From: Gyrodactylus bullatarudis
Lineage: Eukaryota > Platyhelminthes > Monogenea > Gyrodactylidea > Gyrodactylidae
DNA: 64,000 nucleotides
NCBI GenBank assembly: GCA_012064415.1
Contig: SSNU01000300.1
Span: forward strand, 1 to 64,000
Direction: 5' to 3'
Shown here: piece by piece, positions 30,201 through 54,677 of the stretch
Position numbering within the stretch: position 1 is the stretch's first letter
Layout of the letters: each line of letters starts with the position of its first letter
Notes under the pieces: model-generated
The model's database searches: none
Seen by the model: only the letters and a program-made list of their open reading frames with translations
Told to the model about the DNA's origin: nothing
Program-made: the position numbers and the translations under genes

Positions 30201-33200
30201 AGAATAAACTCGAAAAGTTTACCATAATTAAATGTCTTAGCCTAATCTTATCCCTTTAAGTTTACTCTATCATCAAAACTAAAAAATTACTAATTTGAAC
30301 TAATTTAAAGTTTGATTAGGGCACGTACTATCTTTCATTTGAGGACAGTAAAATTGATTTCATACGTTTTGTTTTTTTTCCAGATGCGACATTTCCATAT
30401 TCCTTTGCATCACCGGATCTTTCATATAACCAAATGCAAGCATTATGGCAGCAAAATTTAAGATTGAATATACTTCCTCAATCTGAGATGTGAGTTGAAA
30501 AATAAACCCTCAAATAGAGCATCGCTTTTATTCGTATTTATTCACACGCTGGAGTTTATTCACGCTCCAATGATGAGCTTGAATATGTATTTCAAAATAA
30601 CTAAAACTTCGTGGGACACATACACATAATTTTATTTTGAGATATATATAGACCGTGTGAATCTTTCTATTCGGTACTCTACCTTTTAACATAATTCCCT
30701 CATTCCTAAACATAAACTTTTTCCAGGGTCAACTCTGAGTATTTGACTCGTTTACCTGGTATACAGTCAGATCGAAAGATGTTATCAGATCCGAATAAAC
30801 CTTATCAGAAGCAAATATTAGAAGCAAAAACTCAGATTTTAGAGGGAACTGAAAATTTGGAGCCTTCTATGCCATATTTTATTCACCCCATGTTTGTCTA
30901 CAGTGAGTTTTTGTTGAAATTATTCCAAATGAATACCAAAATCTTTATTAATCATAATTTTAGACATTTGCATTCGAATAATTCACAGACTTACTTTAAG
31001 CTTAGTTCTTAAGATGGGGTTTGCTTGACTTGAAGTTCAGATAAACAAATAAATTTGAGAGAAAAATCATGTATCAATATCAGAATGAATTTACTTATTA
31101 AACCTTTGCAAAGACAAAAACATTTAAATAACTTTTTATCGATTTTAAGACAATTCAAGTTCAGAATGGACATGAAAAATTCAAGTTGATTAATTTCGAT
31201 AACGTTAATTTCTATAAAAATTCGAAAGTAACACAAACGGGAAAAGATGCTAGATTAATCTTGTATTTATGTAGCATGTGTTACACTAATAACTAGACCC
31301 AATGTAGAGATTTGTGACTTGATCTGGTATCTCAGTTATTCTTTTACAACGGTATTTATTTCAACTTTCTCTCTCTTCACTGGAACTAAAATGTAGATCA
31401 AAAGCTTAACCCTTTAGTGAGATTTGAGTTCAAAAGAAAATCGACTTTCTTAGAAGGGTCCAATAGAATCCTTACTATACCTTTTTCAGATGAATTTCGT
31501 ACAATTCAGTTTTCAATTTCGTAAAATTCCGATTGAATATTGTAAGTTTTCAAATCGTTTTCGTGTGTATAATAAATTCATTCATCAAATAAAAATATTT
31601 TCAGATGGTTTTCGTACTAAAGGGTAAGGAATTTCGTAAATTTACAAATCGTTTTCGTGAAATAATTTCTATCGTAAAATTTTGTGTTTTTTTTCGATTC
31701 AAATTTGTAAACTGAGGTTTTCTATTTCGTAAATTTACAAATGGTTTTCATAAAACTAGATAATCAATTTCGTAAAGAGTACAAAAATATAATTAAATCT
31801 TATTTGTTGGCTTTTCATAATATATTTTATAATCCTTATCATTATTATCTTAATTTAATATTTTTTCTTTATCATTTAACAAAATAATTTTAATTCAATT
31901 AAGTCATTGAGTTTCTCTTCAGTACGGTTTTATTCATTATATAAAATGCATCCCTATCATAAGCACCAAAATAAGGTCCGCGAAAAGATACTTGAACTTC
32001 ATTCTCAAGGAAAGCAATGGAAAGAATTTGCCAAGAACTCAGATGTACCTTATACTACAGCAAGATCTTGGATTTTGTCAAATAGACCCGCTCCACTTCC
32101 CAAGGGAGGATGCAAACGGATTAAAAAAACTCCCGATATTATTAATGCTCTCACCAATTTTATTGAAGAAAACGTTCAAGCAACACTCACTCAATGTAAA
32201 GACATGATTGAAAGAGATTTCAATGTGGTAACATCTATTTCCACAGTGCATAACTGGCTTGATTGTGAGCTTTACACCTTGAAAGAAGTAAGAAATTCCC
32301 CCATCGGCATGAATTGTTTGGAGAATAAGATAGCTCGAAAGAATTATATCTCAGAAATGATACAAGACAGAGCTGCCGGGCGCCACGTAATATGGTTAGA
32401 TGAGACAAATTTTAACCTATTTTGTAAACGTAAAGAAGGTCGTTCACTTGTTGGAACGAGAGCGAATGTGGTAAATACAAATTCTAAAGGACAAAATTTA
32501 CACACAATCGGGGCTATTTCAATGAACCAGTTAGTCCATTTTTCTATACAACGGGGTTCCATAAAAAAACCTCAATTTACACAATGGGTTCAGGAGCTAA
32601 TTCAGAAAGCAAGAGAGAAAGGACTATCTCCCATGACGATAATAATTGATAACGCACCTTCTCACAGTGCTGTCGAAGAAGCTATAAACGAAGCAGATGT
32701 AAAAATACTACGCCTAGCTCCATATTCATACTTACTGAATCCTATAGAAAAAATATGGAGTGTATACAAAACAGAAGTTAAGAAAATATTAGCTGATGAA
32801 CGACCCCAGCTTTTAGCTTTCAGGAGACAGCCTGGATTATCAATCCAAGAGTTTCGGTTACAAAAACTTGAAGAGTTTGCAAATAGAGCAAAGCTATTAA
32901 TAACTAATGATAAAATAAGTTCTTGTTGTTATCATGTTGAAAAATACTATCAAGTTGTTACAGAATTAAGAGACTTGAAAGAATAAATAAATTTATTTTA
33001 ATATGCGAAATTGATTATCTAGTTTTATGAAAACCATTTGTAAATTTACGAAATAGAAAACCTCAGTTTACAAATTTGAATCGAAAAATAACACAAAATT
33101 TTACGATAGAAATTATTTCACGAAAACGATTTGTAAATTTACGAAATTCATTACCCTTTAGTACGAAAACCATCTGAAAATATTTTTATTTGATGAATGA

Positions 33201-39200: not shown

Positions 39201-41790
39201 AAAATAAGCAACTTCAAAAAAAACTGTATTTCCTTCAAATCCTTTGGCCTATCTCAAATGATTTATCATGGGTGTGAAAGAGTAAAGAACTACCCGTTTA
39301 AGATATGGCTTTTTTCGGTATCGTCATTTCTTCTTACCAAAAATCTTTTTAGGTTCTATAGATCAAATAAAAGGCATTTCATATAAACATGGCCTCGAAT
39401 ATAATGTTTTTGAAGAACCGTTAACCTTCAAAAGTTTTAATAAGATATTTTCAAGAGAGTAATTACGATCTCATCCAATCATTTGATTTCAGTAAAGTTC
39501 GAAGCTTAATTAAAAGAATATTTTTCTTCAAGATAAAGATTCCATTCTGAGAAATGAGAATGTATCTGGATATTCGAAAGAATTCGATTTATTTTATTTC
39601 CCAATATTTCATGTAAACAAACATGCATAATACGCGCAGATAAATTCACAATAATTTTTTCGTCACATGCTACCAAAATGATACTGATGAAAATCGATAA
39701 TTTTACCCTTGAAGATGTTAGTCTTCTGATGTTTTGCGCATATTCGAAGAGATAAATCTTGCCCGCGTCTATAGAAAACTTTATTTTAATTTGTAAGTCA
39801 CTGTATGATAAGTTTCCGCGTTAGTGATTATATTTTCAAATTGATGGAATTTCGAACAAGTTACTGACACCGCATAATTTTTCTTGTTTAACGTTTAATT
39901 TCAAAATTCTTTATTGATTTTGAAGATTTTAAGCCTTTCGATACTGATTCGTATTCCTAACAGTTTTTATCAAGGGTTAATTGCGTTATTAGGCTTCCTC
40001 GCCCTATTATCCATACTCCCTTTAATAGTTAGAATCAGATGTATAATTTTCATAATTTAGAGAAAAATTTGGTTTTTTTTAATAATTTTGAAAAATCTCC
40101 CAACATTATGCATTTCTAGATTTCTGATTGAAACAAAAGATGTGAACTTTCATTGTCAATATTTTTGGCCAAAAAGGTTATCAATATTTTTTTCAGCTAA
40201 ATTTTATGAGGAGCTACACATGACTCCGTTTACTAAATCCAGTTAAAATTATGGATGGGGATTTATGATTTATTTAGCGCCAAACTTTTACTTTTTTGAA
40301 CTTTGAATTGAAAAAAAGGTTTCATAAAAGAAATTAAAAAAATAACATAATGACCAAATAAGCCCTTCAAAAAATTTCATTAAATCATTCTGGAAGTAGA
40401 CTTTTATCTTCAATAATTCCAGAATGATTTAATTCACTTGGATTGACTTGGTATAATATGGGGAAGTTGTTCACATCAGCAGTGTGATTTGTTGAACTGA
40501 GGACCGACGAACCTTTTTTTCCCGCACTGAGGTGTTCCTTTATTCTTACCTTGACTGGTCTCACTGTCTGCCCAACGTAGGAAGAACCACAATTACATTT
40601 GAACAAGTATATAACTCCTTTTCTTTCAAGCCAAGGGATTGAATCCTTGTCTAAATCGGGAATTTCTTTGTTATGGGGAGTACCTGAAGCTTATGACCAG
40701 AAAATGCTCGTTTGGTTATTTCAAATAACTTGTTATTGATTTGATGTGCAGCAACTCCTATAAACAACTTGAGATAAATTGAGGTTAATGAAATTTTTTT
40801 GGTGATTTTAAAGTAAGAGTTATCAAAAGATTATTCATAGGACCCCAATTAGTCAAACTGGAAACAACCATATAATGTTTGATAAACTCAAAAAATCAAA
40901 ATTTAATTTTCACACGGTGATGGGGTGATCCTAAGAATCAACTTTTGATCCCTCTCTCACTATGAAATCAATACAAAATTTTAATTCAAAGTTCCAAAAA
41001 ATGAAATTTTGGCGCTAACTCCAGCTTTGTTAAAAATTAGATTTATGAATAGTGCAGCACCTACACTTACAAAGGTTGACTAGAAATATTTCGTTCTAGG
41101 TGCTTAGGTAATATATCACACAGGAACGTCTTATTTGGTAATGGATTAGCCCATGTCGCTGAATGTTACAGCTTACTAATGGATCCCACCGAGACTAGTA
41201 CGAAAGGAACTCACAAAGCATTTAGAAATAATCCAAGTATACATATATGGTAGACATATACGCGCGTTAGATTTATATTTCTTATTTATCTAGATGAAAG
41301 ATCTAGATTGAAAGAAAATCTCAATCAAATATGATATCTTGATGGAAAAATTGAGAATTTTGTATAAATCATAAATTCCCATCTTCATATTAACTACTAG
41401 GTGTATACGAGTGATATTCATTGAGAAAAAAAATTTAAATTCTCGTCCAGTCTTTGAGGAGTTTGTCTACATTTATTTTTATATAGTACTAACTACTATT
41501 TTATTATTATTTCTTGATGAGAGTTGCCTAGCAACAAATGAATAGCTAAACTCTTATAGATTGAGAAACTAAGAGAGATGAATTGAGAATCATCATACAG
41601 AACACTAGAAAAGAAAATTCTCTCGATTTCATTGGACGCTAGAAGAATGAATGAGTATTGATTAATCTTATCTTACGCTCTCTTCTTTTTCACCTTACAG
41701 CAAACCAATAAGGATGGACTTGCACATAACCCCACTACGGTCCTAGATGAACAGACGAATAAACCTTCAAGTGAGGCTATACTAACCTAG
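27296..41790 (+). CDS. NOVA: NOVA-type KH-domain RNA-binding protein
   Basis: Neuronal splicing regulator family that binds YCAY clusters. Exons: 27296-27386, 27425-27562, 28649-28986, 29336-29489, 29551-29856, 30384-30489, 30727-30902, 36242-36622, 37443-37580, 37983-38029, 41701-41790; all phases agree, giving about 654 aa. KH1 has [20 protein letters not shown] (GxxG loop at residues 49-52) and ends [20 protein letters not shown]2 has [20 protein letters not shown] (loop at 204-207) and is followed by [20 protein letters not shown] and [14 protein letters not shown], all diagnostic of NOVA. The rest is N/S/Q-rich and disordered. The C-terminal KH3 of vertebrate NOVA is not found. Exons from 36242 on are supported by phase and open frame only. 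A phase-compatible alternative last exon lies at 46485-46526. The 5.3-kb intron 7 and 3.7-kb intron 10 carry transposons. Confidence 0.85.
27563..28648. other. NOVA intron 2 (1086 nt)
   Basis: This intron splits KH1, between FYP and GTLDRV. It is AT-rich. I see no gene, RNA or complete element in it. Confidence 0.6.
31480..31772. repeat. Left terminal inverted repeat of the IS630/Tc1 element
   Basis: 293 bp, mirrored by 33006-33298. It contains internal repeats of a sub-motif reading TTTCGTAAATTTACAAAT and variants, probably transposase binding sites (inference). Confidence 0.93.
31907..32986 (+). CDS. IS630/Tc1-family DDE transposase
   Basis: Intact protein of 359 aa. The N-terminal part has a helix-turn-helix ([20 protein letters not shown]) and a second one near residues 80-120. 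The DDE catalytic domain shows D165 ([13 protein letters not shown]), D248 ([11 protein letters not shown]) and E281 ([15 protein letters not shown]). By my count 32 residues separate the second and third acids, shorter than the 34 of Tc1 and mariner. An in-frame Met14 (MHPYHKHQN) could be the true start. No frameshift or stop is seen, so the gene may be functional. Confidence 0.93.
   Translation: MSFSSVRFYSLYKMHPYHKHQNKVREKILELHSQGKQWKEFAKNSDVPYTTARSWILSNRPAPLPKGGCKRIKKTPDIINALTNFIEENVQATLTQCKDMIERDFNVVTSISTVHNWLDCELYTLKEVRNSPIGMNCLENKIARKNYISEMIQDRAAGRHVIWLDETNFNLFCKRKEGRSLVGTRANVVNTNSKGQNLHTIGAISMNQLVHFSIQRGSIKKPQFTQWVQELIQKAREKGLSPMTIIIDNAPSHSAVEEAINEADVKILRLAPYSYLLNPIEKIWSVYKTEVKKILADERPQLLAFRRQPGLSIQEFRLQKLEEFANRAKLLITNDKISSCCYHVEKYYQVVTELRDLKE
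33006..33298. repeat. Right terminal inverted repeat of the IS630/Tc1 element
   Basis: 293 bp, reverse complement of 31480-31772 with very few differences, ending CTGAAAAAGG before the TA duplication. Confidence 0.93.
34100..34390 (-). pseudogene. LINE reverse-transcriptase 3' fragment
   Basis: The minus strand reads [20 protein letters not shown] and [18 protein letters not shown], nearly the same as the distal part of the LINE at 43834-44060. The reverse transcriptase core is missing, and the reading frame becomes unrelated past [10 protein letters not shown]. It is a dead scrap inside NOVA intron 7. Confidence 0.88.
35680..36125. repeat. Decayed palindromic MITE-like sequence
   Basis: Inner segments resemble the MITE family (TTGGCGCCGG near 35692 and TTTTGGCACCAACT near 36020 mirror one another), but no clear terminal repeats remain. 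Confidence 0.4.
40233..41398. repeat. MITE copy interrupted by a Penelope-like fragment
   Basis: The right end (41340-41398) reads, on the minus strand, TTAATATGAAGATGGGAATT, the family terminus. The weaker left end near 40233-40270 reads ATGGATGGGGATTTATGATT. Inner GCGCCAAAC and GGCGCTAAC blocks mirror each other. The GIY-YIG fragment at about 40385-40790 lies inside. Confidence 0.6.
40385..40790 (-). pseudogene. Penelope-like retroelement fragment: GIY-YIG endonuclease
   Basis: The minus strand reads [20 protein letters not shown] then KVRIKEH, the GIY-YIG nuclease start as found at the C-terminus of Penelope-like retroelements (CxC before SSYVGQT, then R..EH). Upstream, the in-family stretch [17 protein letters not shown] is in a different frame, so there is at least one frameshift near 40680. 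No reverse transcriptase core is seen. It is a dead fragment. Confidence 0.8.
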
Positions 41791-42389: not shown

Positions 42390-44296
42390 ACATCAACGCG
42401 AACAACATCATCGATTACTATAATAGAATGTATAATATTGCTACTATTAAAAAGCGTAGAAGAAACATTGACCATCTCGAATTAAAACTAAATAATCGTC
42501 TAAAACAAACTCAAATACTCCTGTTCAGTTACTGATGGAAGAAGATTACTAATCAACACACAAAATCATATATCATCTCTAACATCAATGACTTATGCTC
42601 GTATTGAGAGGAACCTAAAGAATGAAATTAAACAAAGACCCAAAATTGGTTACCAACAATTGAACAAATACTTTAAATTCTCCAATAAAAACGTTCATAG
42701 TATCAAAGAAAACCCTGACACCATCCAAGAAAAGTTCATCAATGTCTTCAATGCATCACCCCAGTTCAACCCTAACAATCTTAGACACAACCCAAGTTGC
42801 GGAGATGAGATTAATTACAATTTTATGTCATATACTCAATTCTTCAATATGCTTTCAAAACTTAAATTCAAGAATCGACGAGACATCTACAATATTAGCA
42901 TAAATATATTGCTCAATGGTCACTGCACATTCCTAAATAACATATATAATCTATTTAAAAAATCCTTTGATGAAAATTTTATTCCAAAAGATTTCCTTGC
43001 AACAAAAGTTATTCCTCTTCCTAAAAAAGACTCAAATGAATTCAGACCTATCTCGTTACAGTCAACACTCATGAGAATCATTGATTCCTTCCTGTTTATT
43101 CAAATAAGGAAAACTGTAAACATTAACATAATTGACCCCAATCAACATGGCTTCTGTAGGGGTAAATCATGTGAAACTAATCTTTATCAATTTCTAAGCT
43201 ACATCTCATGCTTAAAAAGCAAAAAGAAAAAAATAGTTGTTGTATACATTGACCTTAGTAAGGCCTTTGATAAAGTCTACTTCCCAACTATACTTGAAGC
43301 CTGTCATAAACAAGGTATCTGCTGTAAACTTTTAAACTATCTCGAAAACTATCTCATCAATAGGAATCAATTTGTCGAATGCAATGGCCAAAGATCATAT
43401 AGTCAAATAATCAAATCAGGAGTCCCTCAAGGATCCAGAGTTGGACCTCTACTTTTCAATATTGTATTTGCTGATATTCAACCTTCCTCATTCAAAATTT
43501 TTAAATATGCTGACGACTTTAAAATAGTCTTTGATTTTGATGGTACCTATAACACAAATATTATAAATTCAGAAATATCAACTATCATCAACAAATTAAT
43601 GAGCTTTGGATTGTCCCCTAACATAGAAAAATCATTCTACTCGACTCCAAATGAATCAAGGATCACTGATTTAAATATCTACATCAACCAAAATAAAATT
43701 CACCTTAAAACTACCTTGGGACCTTGGGATTACTTATTCATGGAAACTTGATTTTGTTGATCACTATAAAGAAATTATTAAAAAATTCATTGGCCGGCTC
43801 ATCCACATCCACAAATGCATCAAAATCGACAGCATGAAACTATTTTTATTCAAAGTTTATGCTAGACCAGTAATTGAATACTGTTCTGCAATCTGGAACC
43901 CTGAATGTGACAAATGGTCTAAAAAAATACAAACTGCATGCAACAGATTTACGCGCCTTTTGTCATCAACATACCAAACTGAAATGAAATCCACGAAGAA
44001 CTCCTTGTGGCTAAGAAGAGAACTCAAAACAATTACCCTAATCAAACTCTCACCCCTGGCTAACTCCAATCGTCAAGGCCTACGCTCCAATGTTCCTGAA
44101 TATGACAATCTAAAAAAGCTATCAATTTTCAACAAAGCCAAAAACATATTTAAAAAACTTAAATAATGATAACTCTAGATAATGATGAATTTAAAAAACT
44201 TTATAATTTATAAATCTCCACAAAACTGAAGAATCTATTTAATGTTTATATAGATAACACATGTATTGTTTAATAAATATTATTATTATTTCAGAA
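42390..44296 (+). mobile_element. 5'-truncated non-LTR retrotransposon (LINE, jockey/CR1-like)
   Basis: The body encodes a non-LTR reverse transcriptase and ends in a short TTATTA-type tail (TAATAAATATTATTATTATT near 44275). There is no endonuclease domain, so the copy is 5'-truncated. It is inserted into a MITE copy. Its 3' coding part matches the fragment at 34.1-34.4 kb. Confidence 0.88.
42588..44166 (+). pseudogene. LINE reverse transcriptase, frameshifted
   Basis: The frame 42588-43751 carries reverse-transcriptase blocks: EFRPISLQSTLMRIID, QHGFCRGKSCETNL, VVVYIDLSKAFDKV, SGVPQGSRVGPLLFNIVFAD and the catalytic FKYADDFK (YADD near residue 307). A frameshift at about 43720, next to a repeated TTGGGA, moves the rest into another frame, where it continues with SWKLDFVDHYKEI, the [12 protein letters not shown] block and ends at 44166. 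Upstream of 42588 another frame shows NRLKQTQILLFSY before a stop. The copy cannot make an intact enzyme. Confidence 0.9.
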
Positions 44297-47200: not shown

Positions 47201-47961
47201 TATTATTATCAAGAGAAATTATACTACTTATATATATTTTTATTGGATATTATTATGTACAAGTTTGATGATTTTACACATTTCCATAATCAGTGAAATG
47301 GACAGATTGAAAGAAATTTTAGAGGAGATCCTGCTGAACAAGAATGAGATCAACAGACAGAGCATACTATGATGATAAATGATTCTTTCGTACGTATTCA
47401 ACAGCTATTCTATATATTATATAAAGATTACTCAATATTGGACGTAAAAAGAAAACAGATTTAACTACAGACTATTATTATATTAATTACAAGATGAACT
47501 ATTAAAAGAGTGTAATGGAGAAAAGTTAAATACAAAGAGTATATATTATTATTATTGTTCCCTTCTGAATATCACGTGTGTTCATACATAACAATTCTGA
47601 TCAGAATTCAATTTCCCACAAAATCATATGAAAATCTCAAATTCTTGATATTTTTCGGAAAAAAAATTTCTAACCAACTAATAGACCTACTAAAAAGTAT
47701 ATGGACAATAGAAAAAAACATTTTTTTCTTGGAAAAGTGGGGTGTGCCCTTTCCCATATGCCAAACCTGGGGGACAACTGTATAAAATTATTACTTTTGT
47801 CTATTTTGAGTTTATTGAAAACAGAATCGTAAATTTTTAGAATCCATTTTTATTACTTTGGTGTCTTCTTTATTTGATGTATTATCGTGGAAATAGAATT
47901 AATTTCTTATTTTTAGAATAATAATAGGAAGAAATTACAGTGTTTTTAGACAATAAATCTA

Positions 47962-48240
47962 CTAGCAAAGTGTGGTCACACATTATTACTAATTCCATAT
48001 GAATCTAACTTGACTTCTCACACCTAAATGTTAGAATTCGGATAAGCAAGTGTCAATTCCATGAGAGAGTCAAATAATATTCAACTCACGGTGGCAGATG
48101 TAGACGCGTTTCGTCTTTATTAGGACTCGTCAGTACATCATAGCCAGGATTTATTGCTTATCCGAATTCCAACATTTAGTTGTGAGAAGACAATCTCCAT
48201 CAACTTAGATTCATAATAACCAGTGACCACACTTTTCTAG
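47962..48240. mobile_element. 279-bp palindromic element carrying a hammerhead ribozyme
   Basis: The arms 47962-48049 and 48154-48240 are imperfect inverted repeats that begin CTAGCAAAGTGTGGTCAC and end GTGACCACACTTTTCTAG; the innermost 15 bp (AATTCGGATAAGCAA) match exactly. CTAG at both borders may be part of the repeat or a target duplication. The 104-bp spacer holds the hammerhead motif. No coding capacity; non-autonomous. Confidence 0.8.
48097..48139 (-). ncRNA. Minimal type I hammerhead ribozyme
   Basis: On the minus strand all invariant parts occur in order. Stem I 5' strand GATGTA is 48139-48134, core CTGACGA 48133-48127, stem II 48126-48113 (GTC pairs with GAC, 8-nt loop), GAA 48112-48110, stem III ACGCGT 48109-48104 (self-complementary), and the cleavage nucleotide C 48103 after GT. 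The stem I 3' strand TACATC (48102-48097) pairs perfectly with the 5' strand. The layout with a tiny stem III is that of the hammerheads found in animal satellite DNAs and Penelope-like elements; such ribozymes often cut as dimers. Predicted cut lies between 48103 and 48102. Confidence 0.85.
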
Positions 48241-48268
48241 TGTAGTTTAAATCATATTTTATATGTTA

Positions 48269-49600: not shown

Positions 49601-49903
49601 ATTCATCAATTAAAATTATAACAAAAGAATTATATTCAAAGAGATATGTACATTTCGCCAGGTCTCGTCAGTCTCAATTCCTGGTTCAATATTTAATAAA
49701 ATTGTTTTAATGAATTGTTTTGAATGAAAATTGTAAAAAAATTTCTCTTGAGCAATTCCAATTGATGAAAAACCAAAAAACTTTTCTAGTAGGTAGAAAA
49801 GAACTACAGTTTTACAATTTTCTGAATTGAGACTGACGAGACCTGGCGAAATGTACATATCTCTTTGAATATAATTCTTTTGTTATAATTTTAATTGATG
49901 AAT
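49601..49903. repeat. Foldback element with perfect 80-bp arms
   Basis: The arms 49601-49680 and 49824-49903 are exact reverse complements by my reading, around a 143-bp loop. Each arm contains CTGACGAGACCTGGCGAAAT (right arm on plus, left arm on minus), a hammerhead-like core described in the findings. No coding capacity. Exact arms imply recent origin or gene conversion. Confidence 0.9.
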
Positions 49904-51060
49904 ATTTCCAACTATCCGGACGTATATGAAAATGTACGTATATTTTTATCTAAAAATATTTTATTATCTTTTTATATTTTTTGAGTTAGAATCAGGCTTT
50001 TTTGCATAAATAAATGATGAATTATTCAAGAATAAACAATTGTTTTTATATTCCAATAACTTATACAAGCCTTATGTAAGCAGACTTACCAACTTGAGGT
50101 CTAGGGGATTTATTAGTTGCTTAGGGATGTCCTAGAAGAACAGTTTTTAAAAATATGTTTTATTCAAGTTATCTTTAGTGGAAGTTCATTTGGGATCTCT
50201 CAGACCCCAGATTTCGTGCAAGGAATAAGAAAAAATATTCGTAAAAAACGTTTAAATTTTCACTTTGGTGATATCAACGTGTAAGATGTTCTAAAATTTT
50301 GTAAAAAGTTTCCATATTCGAAATTTTCCGAATTCATTTTTCTAACTAGCAATCGAAAATTTGATCGGAATTTGAAATTTTGACCTACCCATTATTTCGA
50401 CTAATCTATAGATTATTTCCCCTCTCATATTTTGCAGAAATTTATCTTTGGAGTTGGTTTAACATCGATAATATGAAAACAAATTCCGATACGACTTCAA
50501 TTTTGAAGTAAAAATAAATAGAATAAATAAATTGTATGAGAGCAACTATTCTCTAATTTAATTTTTATATCATAGCTAGAAAATCGATGATATGATTTAT
50601 TTATGATTGTAAAAGAGAAAGATTTCCAAAACTAATACTCTATGTCCAAGGGGTGTTTATTCAGAATTAGTATGTTTTAAAATTGAAAAAATACAGATCT
50701 AGAATCTCTTTTTACATAAGCATATATAAAAGTAATTTCAAAATTTGTATGTTTTTGCTCAAAATTAGTATGTTCATAAATAATCTGTTTAGTTTCATTT
50801 TACTACTCTGATCTTTCTTCAACAGCGTTTTTCCCTAGATTTAAGAAAAGCGTGGAATAAATGTAGATTTCATATTTATCCGAATGCGGAATTTGCTGAT
50901 TTGGTAATTAAAAGTATGAATTCTATAATGAAATTTTAGGAAATATAACCTATTTTTCATAGGTATTTTTGATTAGGTTCATTTGGTTGAGTATATGTTC
51001 GTGATTTTTCACTTGAGTGATAATCCCTGAGTTCTCATTCAAACTGATGTTGAATAATTA

Positions 51061-51791
51061 TTATAATTACACTAAACTTCCTAGAAAATGTATTATCCGA
51101 AAAATAATCGATCGAAATATTTCTACCTGATTACTCATGAGTACGACCATTAATTTTCAAAAATATTTTTAGAACCTTGTGTGTTCTGAAGCGCAAAATA
51201 AGGCTTCAACTTCACAATAAAATAATAAAAATTTGTATTTTGGCTAATACCACTGTGCTCTTGCCTCTAAACCTTTTTTTTCATTAATAAGCGAAATATA
51301 TTTTTTTCGTTCTACATCAATAAGAATAACTCCATCCGATGCAGAATGAAAAGTTGTTTCACTTGCCTAAATTTTATGCATCAATATCATAATCGGTGAA
51401 AACTAGACGAGTTCAAAGTTGATAGGATCGGGATTTTAGTTTTCGAATGAAAATTGATAAAATTCCATTTTTAATATGACTTTAGTTATGGAACCCGGTT
51501 TTTTCTTACCGATAACGTCATATCATGTAAGCTTTGCCATATATTTCGATTATTAATGGAGCTAGATTAATGAAAAAAGGTTTAGAGGCAAGAGCACAGT
51601 GATATTAGCCAAAATACAAATTTTTATTATTTTATTGTGAAGTTGAAGCCTTATTTGGCGCTTCAGAACACACAAGGTTCTAAAAATATTTTTGAAAATT
51701 AATGGTCGTACTCATGAGTAATCAGGTAGAAATATTTCGATCGATTATTTTTCGGATAATACATTTTCTAGGAAGTTTAGTGTAATTATAA
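51061..51791. repeat. Long inverted repeat, arms of about 220-240 bp
   Basis: The left arm 51061-51283 is mirrored at 51566-51791 with only a few mismatches (for example GAAGCGCAAAATAAGG against GAAGCGCCAAATAAGG when read on one strand). Beyond this the match continues after a 14-nt gap. The loop is about 280 bp. Transcripts across it would form a long double-stranded RNA. Confidence 0.88.
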
Positions 51792-54677
51792 TCACCAATA
51801 CTTGAAGAATCCAAAATCGATGCTTAAACTCATTGCATTCAAGTTTTGATTGCTATAATTAATTTCTGTTATAAAAAACCTGTTATATTCTAGTCTAATT
51901 AACGTTTTCATCTTTTTAAAGCATTCTAAATCATCTTTATATAAGATGCTGTTGTTATACCGATTTTGTACTAGCTCAAAACTTATACTATAACATACAC
52001 TTATTATTTTTACGACTAGCCCGCCTATTTTATATTAAACTAATTATTTTTAATTTTGTTTCCATTAATACTTTCAGATCGAATTCTTTTCCGTTGGTTG
52101 AAAGCCCACTTTCTCTAGAGTAGTTAAAACTTCTGATCAATAGTTTAAAAACTATTTCACTCAACAATATGATCATAAAAATATTATAATGCAGGTCAAC
52201 ACTGTTTACTTTCTTTTATTTTATAAAACTATTCATAACTATATTTACAATACAATTATATAATCATACATGTCTACAAGTGCCTTTATTTTGGTACGCT
52301 TGAAAATCACTCTCCAATACTCTAGATTTCGTCTAAATTTTTCTTATAACAAATAAGAGTTCAAACTGGCTAATGATTCATTTCTAAAAGAATCCAAATT
52401 TCCTTCCAAACAATCTGGTACTGAGATAGTCAAATACCTTCTTCAAGGGATGAGACGTTAGTATTCGGAATCTTCTCGGAGTTTTACTTTATCTAGAAGC
52501 CTGAATCTAATTGTTCAACAGTCTGTAAAAAGAACTAAACTAATCATTCCTGTAATTCAGATATATTTTGGATCAGAGAAGATGCAATTGATTCTCAGAT
52601 ATTTTAAATCAAAATAAAAAATATTTTCAATAGGCCTCGGAAAAATCCCTTTTAATTATGATTGATTAAACTTTTAGATGCAATAATTTAGTTGAATGCA
52701 TGTTAAACGTGATATTTCTCATCAAAAAATTCTCGAAGAATAAAATTTTTTCTATTGAAAAACATGTATATTCATAAATTTTATGGATTTTTATCAACAC
52801 TTGATATACAAAAACCATTTATTTTCTTAGCTTTGCAGCAGAAAAATCAATACTTTTTGTAGAATGTACATTTTGTATAGAAAGGTTTTTGGCGTGATTC
52901 GTGTACTGAAGCCTTTAAAGCATTCGAGAAACACTATCAATGTAACAAGGATCCGAATACGCTACGCAGTGTTTTTCTAAAGACTTGAGGAAATAATTTC
53001 AAGCAATCTATCGACATTTTAGATATTTGATGTTGATAAATTTAATCAAACGTATAAAAATACAGACTAAAACTATTTTTTTAATTCTTAAGAAATAACT
53101 AATGATTAATAAGGTATTAACCATTAACAGAAAATCTTTTGTTTTTCCATGAAGACGTAGAAAGATCAAGAAATAGAAACTAAGATTGGACCAATGAGAA
53201 GTAAGCCTTTGTGTCAACATTTATTTAACTGGTAAGCTACTTTTTCGGTTCAGACCGAGATTATGGCTCAACTAAGACCAAATCTAAAAAGATATTTTGC
53301 TACGAACATGATCCATGGCAAGATATTATGATGAAATGTTTGTTTGAAATCCAAATTTTAGTTTAAGCTAGATCAATTGAGTGATAAAATGATGTTTTCT
53401 GGAATTTTTATTCGTCAAGAAAATTGCCAATAGTCTTCGAAGTTTTATAATATTACTGTATTTATAATTACGAGTATAATTGTGACTATTCAAGTCTTGA
53501 TGTTATCTAACACAATATTTTTTACAAATACTCTGAATAAATGGTCTCAAAGTGTTTAAAACTGTAAATTCTGATATACCGACTCTTTACAGTATGAAAT
53601 CAAGAAAAGATTTTTTATTTCCTGAAATATTTATCGAGATTCAGACTAAATTTGCACAAGGATAAATGTTTTTTACAAAAAAAGTAGTTTGACTGAAATT
53701 CCAAGTTATAAAGTAATCGATGGTTTGTACAATACAATAAAATATATAGGTGCAAATAATATTCTAATTATAAATATTCCATGTTTCATTCATGATACAG
53801 ATTGATACAATCTGGACAAATAAGCCTCCTTCGTTTATTCAATCCTCGATCATAGACAAAATAAGTTAGTGTGTGGGTGCGGGGTTATAGGAATCTTTTC
53901 ATGAGAAAATAGTGATATCATTCTAATTTAGTTAGAAAATCTTGATTTGTTTTGGACGCAAAGGATCGGTTTGTTGACGGCGTTACTTCTTGGCTAAGAT
54001 TTCTCAGTCTGATCGTCAAGTTTGGTCTCTTGCTTGAAAATTTGAGATAAAAATCAGTTAAATTGACCTGTTAATTAATTTATTTATCACAACATCAAAG
54101 GTGCAAGCAAAAAGAATATATTTAAGTCACCAGACACCAGAAATAAAAAAATTATTAACTTGAATTATCATAAATATATATTGGGTTAAGTGTTGATCTT
54201 TATACAAAAATATTATCTCAAGATATTCTTAAACATGATTTACGGGTCTTGTGTGTGTTACTTTGAATTTAATCAATAATTTCTTCTGTGAAAGGTGTGC
54301 GAAAGAAAAATAATTTAATTTTTGTTGGTTTGTGATCTTTCTTGAAGATAAACACATTTGTTTGAATGAACTTTCTTGGCGGACTCTATTAATTGTATTC
54401 AAAAAATATTGATGAATTCATAAGAATACCGCACTCCTACTATAGTCTAGGGGGTCAAAAATACAAATTACTTTAAATGTTTGCTAGAGTTTACACCTGG
54501 ATTATGAGTCATAATAATATTAGTATGATTTTTTCTCTGGAACTCTGATGGTCTTAATTTAATTTAATTTTTTAGATAAAATCCAAACGGTACAGTCCAA
54601 TTCCATCTACTTTTTCAAATAATAATTTATTTAGGCTGTTTTATAATAAAAGAAAATTATCTTTTATTATAAACATA

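What the first reader, a model, noticed from the sequence alone, without database searches (positions are those of the whole stretch)
48097..48139. Hammerhead ribozyme inside a palindromic element
All invariant hammerhead nucleotides are present in order on the minus strand (CTGACGA, stem II, GAA, self-complementary ACGCGT, C at the cut), and stem I is a perfect 6-bp helix. The surrounding 279-bp unit has inverted-repeat arms that flank the ribozyme. Hammerheads of this minimal type occur in animal satellites and in Penelope-like elements; the window also holds a Penelope-like GIY-YIG fragment. A palindromic, MITE-like carrier is unusual and suggests a non-autonomous element processed through self-cleaved, perhaps circular, RNA.
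Basis: partly seen in the sequence, partly recalled or inferred. Interest (0 to 1): 0.85.

Follow-up and report, generated by a model that had tools for sequence, protein, structure and literature searches.

The report
Self-cutting RNA in flatworm jumping gene
A flatworm parasite of fish carries hundreds of copies of a short jumping gene that starts like a transfer-RNA gene and holds a self-cutting RNA motif, and the mirror-image shape of many copies was made when they were inserted, apparently by the worm's Penelope-type copying machinery, not by a DNA transposon.

Summary
The hammerhead at 48097-48139 (-) is real: all core nucleotides and a perfect 6-bp stem I are present. Rfam type I gives 23.9 bits (E 0.0015 in 401 bp), below its 34-bit cut-off. 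The genome (Gyrodactylus-like monogenean by COX1) holds 235 cores with a full 4-bp stem II; a reversed control finds 0. The core varies 0.5% among copies against 3.7-6.2% in the rest of the unit.

The carrier is not a MITE. The unit is about 371 bp: a tRNA-like head with box A and box B, the hammerhead right behind it, a 203-nt tail. It resembles the schistosome Sm-alpha SINEs; some copies are tandem. The palindrome is two partial units joined head to head. 18 of 31 loci have it, all 18 head to head, with varying centres and, in 12, a long tail end on one arm only. Eleven of the 18 lie inside one 10-14-bp duplication, so one insertion made both arms. This is the published signature of Penelope-like elements (PLEs); three PLE copies of this genome show the same one-sided tail. 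Best reading: a hammerhead SINE inserted by PLE enzymes priming from both ends of a break. Cleavage and circular RNA are untested; the PLE partner was not identified.

The parts
47931..48241 (.). whole insert: two partial SINE units joined head to head
   Evidence: blastn of natural head and tail pieces onto L009 (window = L009 + 46439); no target-site duplication found for this copy
47931..48102 (-). 3' tail of the main unit (tail positions 1-184)
   Evidence: 86.4% identity
48097..48139 (-). type I hammerhead ribozyme, cut expected between 48103 and 48102
   Evidence: RF00163 23.9 bits, E 0.0015; read directly
48140..48151 (-). last bases of the tRNA-like head (AATCC of box B and TGGCTAT); the rest of the head is missing in this copy
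   Evidence: unit positions -49 to -1 lie at 48103-48151; 270 genome places with box B-linker-hammerhead within 3 mismatches, reversed control 0
48152..48153 (.). centre where the two arms join
   Evidence: arms end at L009 1712 and 1715
48154..48241 (+). second, 5'-truncated unit in inverted orientation (tail positions 54-154), without hammerhead
   Evidence: 81.2% identity

Best explanation
The feature is an old copy of a tRNA-derived, hammerhead-bearing SINE (family A) in a Gyrodactylus-like monogenean. The unit is 168 nt of head (tRNA-like box A and box B, then the hammerhead) followed by a 203-nt tail that ends at two alternative places some 25-44 nt apart. Shown: the unit, its hammerhead, tandem copies, head-to-head copies, and duplications enclosing both arms. 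Inferred: polymerase III transcribes the unit. A Penelope-like RT/endonuclease then cuts both strands about 13 bp apart. It starts reverse transcription at two internal sites near the RNA 3' end, from each of the two DNA 3' ends, and the two cDNAs are joined where they meet. This gives a palindrome with both RNA 3' ends outside, one longer than the other, and a ~13-bp duplication. The hammerhead probably acts as a dimer, because its stem III is the self-complementary ACGCGT, and cuts multimeric transcripts; that step is inferred only.
For: 235 cores, reversed control 0. 270 places with box B-linker-hammerhead within 3 mismatches, control 0. Core letters off majority 2 of 437, against 125 of 2003 in the head outside the ribozyme and 288 of 7695 in the tail (Fisher 4e-9 and 3e-5). 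Of 31 loci, 18 have both orientations, 18 of 18 head to head; leaving out the window and the seven loci matched by both arms, 10 of 23. Exact end repeats of 10 nt or more in 13 of 31 loci against 4 of 930 mismatched flank pairs; 11 of the 13 are head-to-head copies. One arm ends at tail 199-203 and the other at 159-175 in 12 of 18. Published PLE structure: inverted pLTR, 31-bp tail optional on one of the inverted pLTRs, 8-10-bp TSDs, trans mobilisation of a host gene (PMC3846280, passages). A purified PLE protein cuts and extends both strands and starts RT at two adjacent internal sites (PMC11167929, main text). Three inverted PLE copies of this genome (L084-L086) have, read by eye, the same one-sided tail; L084 and L085 have 12-nt exact end repeats, L086 has only 6 nt.
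Against: No sampled PLE shares sequence with the SINE tail: in 12 stretches cut upstream of PLE RT matches and 7 other PLE loci only pieces that look like old SINE copies (L070, L071) match, so the partner is unidentified; only 2 of the 12 stretches showed the PLE-linked ribozyme motif, so several may miss the pLTR. LINEs were not tested. The window copy has no recognisable duplication, and 18 of 31 loci show none of 10 nt or more. ARAGORN finds no tRNA in 17 loci and Rfam none in five, so the tRNA origin rests on promoter boxes recalled from memory. No homology 5' end is a clear ribozyme-cut end.
Confidence: 0.72

Rival explanations
1. A palindromic MITE: a non-autonomous DNA transposon with terminal inverted repeats that happens to carry a hammerhead.
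For: The window copy alone has inverted arms at both ends; 11 of 18 head-to-head copies have 10-14-nt end repeats.
Against: 13 of 23 loci retrieved without matching both arms have one orientation only. The arms are unequal and the centres are placed differently. Tandem units occur. The 5' ends are variably truncated, as in retrotransposition. The unit has tRNA-like promoter boxes.
Confidence: 0.03
2. A classical animal retrozyme: tandem transcripts are cut by the hammerhead, circularised and used as templates; the palindromes are an unrelated insertion accident.
For: The unit is about 371 bp with a type I hammerhead. Tandem units have one constant tail-to-head junction in at least L014, L016, L020, L023, L036 and L112. 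Retrozymes are 170-400-nt RNAs and PLEs are a proposed carrier (PMC7229834, abstract and sections 13, 14, 17).
Against: None of 84 homology 5' ends in 39 loci is a clear cut-site end: three map to position 0, but on inspection one continues 10 nt further, one has a ribozyme deletion and one is an internal deletion with a shared TC. Long tandem arrays were not seen in the loci read; a genome-wide count failed. Head-to-head copies are frequent and regular. Circular RNA is untestable here.
Confidence: 0.17
3. The unit is a solo pLTR of an autonomous PLE not sampled here, so the hammerhead belongs to a PLE proper.
For: The insertion geometry is that of PLE pLTRs. One unit abuts a PLE RT fragment in L028/L040.
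Against: Among the 30 loci fetched around PLE RT matches (30 of 150 scored matches, 446 candidates), only L040, L055 and L066 contain unit sequence. In L070 and L071, which enlarge the last two, the pieces look like old SINE copies outside the PLE's own repeats. Two families with different tRNA-like heads exist.
Confidence: 0.1

Closest known systems
Sm-alpha / Sj-alpha SINE-like elements of schistosomes
   Same: Short, tRNA-derived, with a type I hammerhead, many copies, in flatworms (2342 of 2368 tRNA-Gln-TTG predictions in S. mansoni were classed as SINEs, similar to Sm-alpha; PMC2770079, passages).
   Different: The hammerhead here has a diminished self-complementary stem III; head-to-head palindromic insertions with one-sided tails are frequent. 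Sequence similarity to Sm-alpha itself was not tested.
Metazoan non-LTR retrozymes
   Same: Type I hammerhead in a small unit (about 371 bp), some tandem copies, duplications over 4 bp, PLEs in the same genome (PMC7229834, abstract and three sections).
   Different: tRNA-like promoter boxes (a review says retrozymes do not seem to harbour promoters, PMC7761336, passages); dispersed and palindromic copies among those read; no circular RNA evidence.
Penelope-like elements with pLTRs
   Same: Head-to-head inverted ends, ~31-nt tail on one arm, short duplications (PMC3846280, passages; PMC11167929, main text), minimal hammerhead.
   Different: No room for a coding frame; no sequence in common with the PLE ends sampled here.

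Membership tests
Type I hammerhead ribozyme | Invariant core CUGANGA...GAAA...UH with stems I and II in type I order | tested here: met
Type I hammerhead ribozyme | Covariance score above the Rfam gathering cut-off (34 bits) | tested here: not met
   23.9 bits for this copy, 0 hits at gathering; 29 of 57 scored genome matches pass
Type I hammerhead ribozyme | Self-cleavage | not testable with these tools
   needs in vitro transcription
tRNA-derived SINE | Internal polymerase III boxes A and B (consensus recalled) | tested here: met
   TGGCCTAGTGG and GGTTCGAATCC in heads of copies; box B-hammerhead junction in 270 places. No intact tRNA fold found; the window copy keeps only the end of box B
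tRNA-derived SINE | Dispersed copies with variable 5' ends and target-site duplications | tested here: met
tRNA-derived SINE | 3' end shared with the partner retrotransposon | tested here: inconclusive
   no match in 12 stretches upstream of PLE RT and 7 other PLE loci, a small sample; LINEs not tested. Not every SINE shares its tail (recalled)
Metazoan retrozyme | 150-450-bp repeat with a type I hammerhead, in tandem | tested here: inconclusive
   about 371-bp unit; a minority of the loci read are tandem
Metazoan retrozyme | Expressed as circular RNA | not testable with these tools
   no transcript data
PLE-type insertion | Head-to-head ends, one-sided ~31-nt tail, short duplication | tested here: met
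   compared with PMC3846280
Penelope-like element proper | RT plus GIY-YIG open reading frame within the element | tested here: not met
   the unit is about 371 bp; no frame of 120 codons or more overlaps the insert; the GIY-YIG fragment is 7.4 kb away
MITE | Constant terminal inverted repeats at both ends of every copy | tested here: not met
   13 of 23 loci single-orientation

The most novel reading that the evidence does not exclude
The palindromic copies are a genomic record of double-ended target-primed reverse transcription by a Penelope-like enzyme acting in trans on a hammerhead SINE: each copy is two independently primed cDNAs of a polymerase III transcript started at both ends of a ~13-bp staggered break. 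If so, this family shows, copy by copy in a genome, both-strand priming by a PLE and the use of PLE enzymes by hammerhead SINEs; my searches (listings capped) showed no paper describing that.
Probability: 0.45. Interest if true: 0.68.

Novelty: new variant of a known kind. Interest (0 to 1): 0.5.

Why it matters
Who mobilises hammerhead-bearing SINEs and retrozymes in animals is open; PLEs are called a strong candidate (PMC7229834). A family whose insertions carry the PLE signature, with enough copies to measure break spacing, RT start sites and joins, makes that question testable, and bears on the unresolved PLE insertion mechanism (palindromes were ascribed to self-priming in PMC3846280; both-strand extension was shown in vitro in PMC11167929).

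Tried and rejected
MITE and twin priming: rejected because both outer ends of palindromic copies are the unit's 3' tail and many copies lack an inverted arm.

Unit as the pLTR of a sampled PLE: rejected for those sampled.

Arms starting at the ribozyme cut: three of 84 ends map there but none survives inspection.

A tail-to-tail pair in the pattern list (C125:110436+/110885-): on reading (L120) it is two neighbouring head-to-head inserts, so not an exception. The '-' arm of the second ends 3 nt beyond the ribozyme cut; one case, not interpreted.

Stem-I alignment of the two SINE families by MAFFT: two of 16 stretches were mis-cut (L075, L080) and the alignment is not used; by eye GRUGUA/UACAUC and GGCAUA/UAUGUC share the helix with changes on both sides at two pairs.

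Pseudoknot control for the PLE-linked motif: cross-pairing was as good as own pairing because CCGG is shared, so that test does not support it.

Vienna cofold: dimers of three ribozymes score below twice the monomer (-21.4 against -16.8 kcal/mol for the window sequence); this suits dimer action but proves nothing.

Rows dropped: two separate nearby pieces (L015:861-987, L025:381-443) were left out of the end analysis.

Full report
What is there. The minus strand at 48139-48097 carries a complete minimal type I hammerhead. It scores 23.9 bits against Rfam type I (E 0.0015 in 401 bp), below the 34-bit cut-off, probably because stem III is a bare ACGCGT, the loop-closing pair of stem II is C.A and stem I differs from the family consensus. 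On the whole window nothing reaches the gathering score. The core is nevertheless no chance motif. The same core with a 4-bp stem II occurs 235 times in the 77.3-Mb genome while the reversed pattern occurs 0 times. Among 31 loci (L009-L038, retrieved by DNA similarity to the window element, plus L083, taken from the core-pattern list), the 12 scored core positions differ from the majority in 2 of 437 letters, against 125 of 2003 in the rest of the head and 288 of 7695 in the tail (Fisher p 4e-9 and 3e-5). Those Fisher values treat letters as independent, which related copies are not.

Organism. COX1 reads open with codes 4, 5 and 9; some residues fit the flatworm code best (from recall). It is 90% identical to a Gyrodactylus cluster and 86% to Macrogyrodactylus. 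A nuclear pyrophosphatase in the window has flatworms at the top of the hits whose name gives an organism. The genome is therefore that of a Gyrodactylus-like monogenean; the species is not known.

The unit. Copies read on the ribozyme strand (output cut in the middle) show a head with box A TGGCCTAGTGG and box B GGTTCGAATCC (consensus recalled), a 13-nt linker whose last six bases are stem I, the hammerhead, and a 203-nt tail ending ...GTCTAAAAACACTGTAATTTCCATATGGTGCTTATTTACA. Head plus tail is about 371 nt. The box B-linker-hammerhead junction is found in 270 places within 3 mismatches, reversed control 0. ARAGORN (17 loci) and Rfam (5 loci) find no tRNA. A second family (L001, L074, L075, L077-L079, L081 among others) has another tRNA-like head (box B-like GGTTCAAATCC), another tail and an 8-nt ACGCGCGT in stem III. 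Sm-alpha of schistosomes is also a tRNA-derived SINE with a type I hammerhead (PMC2770079, passages; PMC8490949, passages).

The palindrome. Natural head and tail pieces were mapped on the 31 loci. In 18 both orientations occur, all 18 head to head with both tails outside; one of these (L029) has only a 26-nt second arm. Seven of them (L010-L015, L023) matched the query with both arms and so ranked high for that reason; without these and the window it is 10 of 23. The centres are placed differently, though some 5' ends recur (for example near +54 to +57 and at -26). Tandem units with one constant tail-to-head junction occur in L014, L016, L020, L023 and L036, and L112 has two units in direct order. 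Exact repeats of 10 nt or more at the outer ends, within 6 nt of the mapped ends, occur in 13 of 31 loci, 12-14 nt in 11 of the 13, against 4 of 930 mismatched flank pairs; 11 of the 13 are head-to-head copies, so one insertion made both arms. Of seven further loci chosen because they were inverted (L113-L119), four (L114, L115, L117, L119) have 12-13-nt repeats near the ends and three do not reach 10 nt. Ends are asymmetric: 12 of 18 have one arm ending at tail 199-203 and the other at 159-175, two are long on both sides, four are intermediate. Among about 100 listed places of each pattern, neighbours within 600 bp on opposite strands point apart in 7 pairs and towards each other in 0 (by eye), and 6 against 1 (by eye); the one exception proved to be two neighbouring head-to-head inserts. 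The window copy is old (81-86% identity in the two tails), its right arm holds only tail 54-154, and no duplication is visible.

How it works. This geometry is what is printed for Penelope-like elements: an inverted pLTR closing the 5' side, a 31-bp tail optional on one of the inverted pLTRs, duplications of 8-10 bp, and mobilisation of an unrelated gene in trans (PMC3846280, passages; the authors favour self-priming on an antisense template). A recombinant PLE protein cuts and extends both strands and begins reverse transcription at two adjacent internal sites that define the tail; its hammerhead was not needed for insertion in vitro (PMC11167929, main text). PLEs are abundant here: 150 scored matches of 446 candidates for one RT fragment, several with open frames near 800 codons (RVT_1 in the two tested). 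Three inverted PLE copies (L084-L086) have, read by eye, the tail on one side only; two have 12-nt exact end repeats, the third only 6 nt. So the likeliest mechanism is PLE enzymes priming from both ends of a staggered break and copying two SINE RNAs that are joined in the middle. That is inference from footprints: no PLE sampled shares the SINE tail, the sample is small, and LINEs were not tested.

What the hammerhead does. In 39 loci 60 of 84 homology 5' ends lie upstream of the cut, and none is a clear cut-site end. Templates were therefore mostly uncleaved at that site, or were circles or multimers. The conserved core still says that the ribozyme matters to the element. The self-complementary stem III suggests dimer action, as known for newt and proposed for PLE hammerheads (PMC6155905 and PMC7761336, passages).

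Novelty. Hammerhead SINEs, animal retrozymes and PLE inverted copies are all in print. Full-text searches listed no paper that describes head-to-head, one-sided-tail insertions of a hammerhead SINE (I saw 20 of 41, 20 of 22, 20 of 22, 12 of 24, 15 of 302 and 12 of 107 papers, as listings with abstract starts). No held paper has both Gyrodactylus and hammerhead ribozyme (0 papers). The library holds open-licence PMC papers only, and two key papers are not held. I rate it a new variant of a known kind.

Noticed in passing
window 49626-49685 (-) and 49819-49878 (+); also L032, L035, L041, L055, L056, L061, L068, L072, L073, L084-L099, L103, L104: A second hammerhead-like motif, in several cases beside PLE frames or ends. 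It has CTGANGA, GAAA, a stem III hairpin and a stem I that varies in concert (TAAGT/ACTTA, GAGT/ACTC, GAGA/TCTC, TAAGGT/ACCTTA, TTTGGT/ACCAAA among 27 distinct copies; six pair over only 3 bp AGT/ACT), but stem II is reduced to one pair and its loop (CCCGG, CCTGG, ACCGAC) can pair with CCGGG, CCAGG, GTCGGT just 5' of stem I. 438 pattern matches in the genome, reversed control 0. Rfam gives at most 18.9 bits (RAGATH-1, E 1) in the window and no hammerhead match in L085 or L090. The control for the pseudoknot was not discriminating. It may be a hammerhead architecture with stem II replaced by a pseudoknot; pseudoknots between loop II and bases before stem I are known for other hammerheads (recalled).
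   Followed up: partly
window 49626-49878: The two copies of that motif stand head to head about 160 bp apart, apparently a decayed inverted PLE end; the 5' pseudoknot strand of the + copy is lost.
   Followed up: partly
L001-L008, L074-L082: A second hammerhead SINE family with a different tRNA-like head and the same hammerhead design; L075 and L079 are head-to-head copies.
   Followed up: partly
window 40433-40788 (-): PLE C-terminal fragment with GIY-YIG (PF01541, E 2.5e-5; tblastn 67-73% to two long PLE frames).
   Followed up: partly
window 31907-32986 (+) and 42588-43751 (+): Open frames with a DDE_3 transposase domain (Tc1/mariner type, recalled) and an RVT_1 reverse transcriptase domain.
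   Followed up: no
window 51060-51288 and 51566-51792: A 229-bp inverted repeat, 98% identical.
   Followed up: no
G000:C125:110200-111150 (L120): Two neighbouring head-to-head SINE inserts; the '-' arm of the second ends 3 nt beyond the ribozyme cut.
   Followed up: partly
G000:C13:9972-11309 (-): Mitochondrial COX1, 90% identical to Gyrodactylus when read in the flatworm code.
   Followed up: yes
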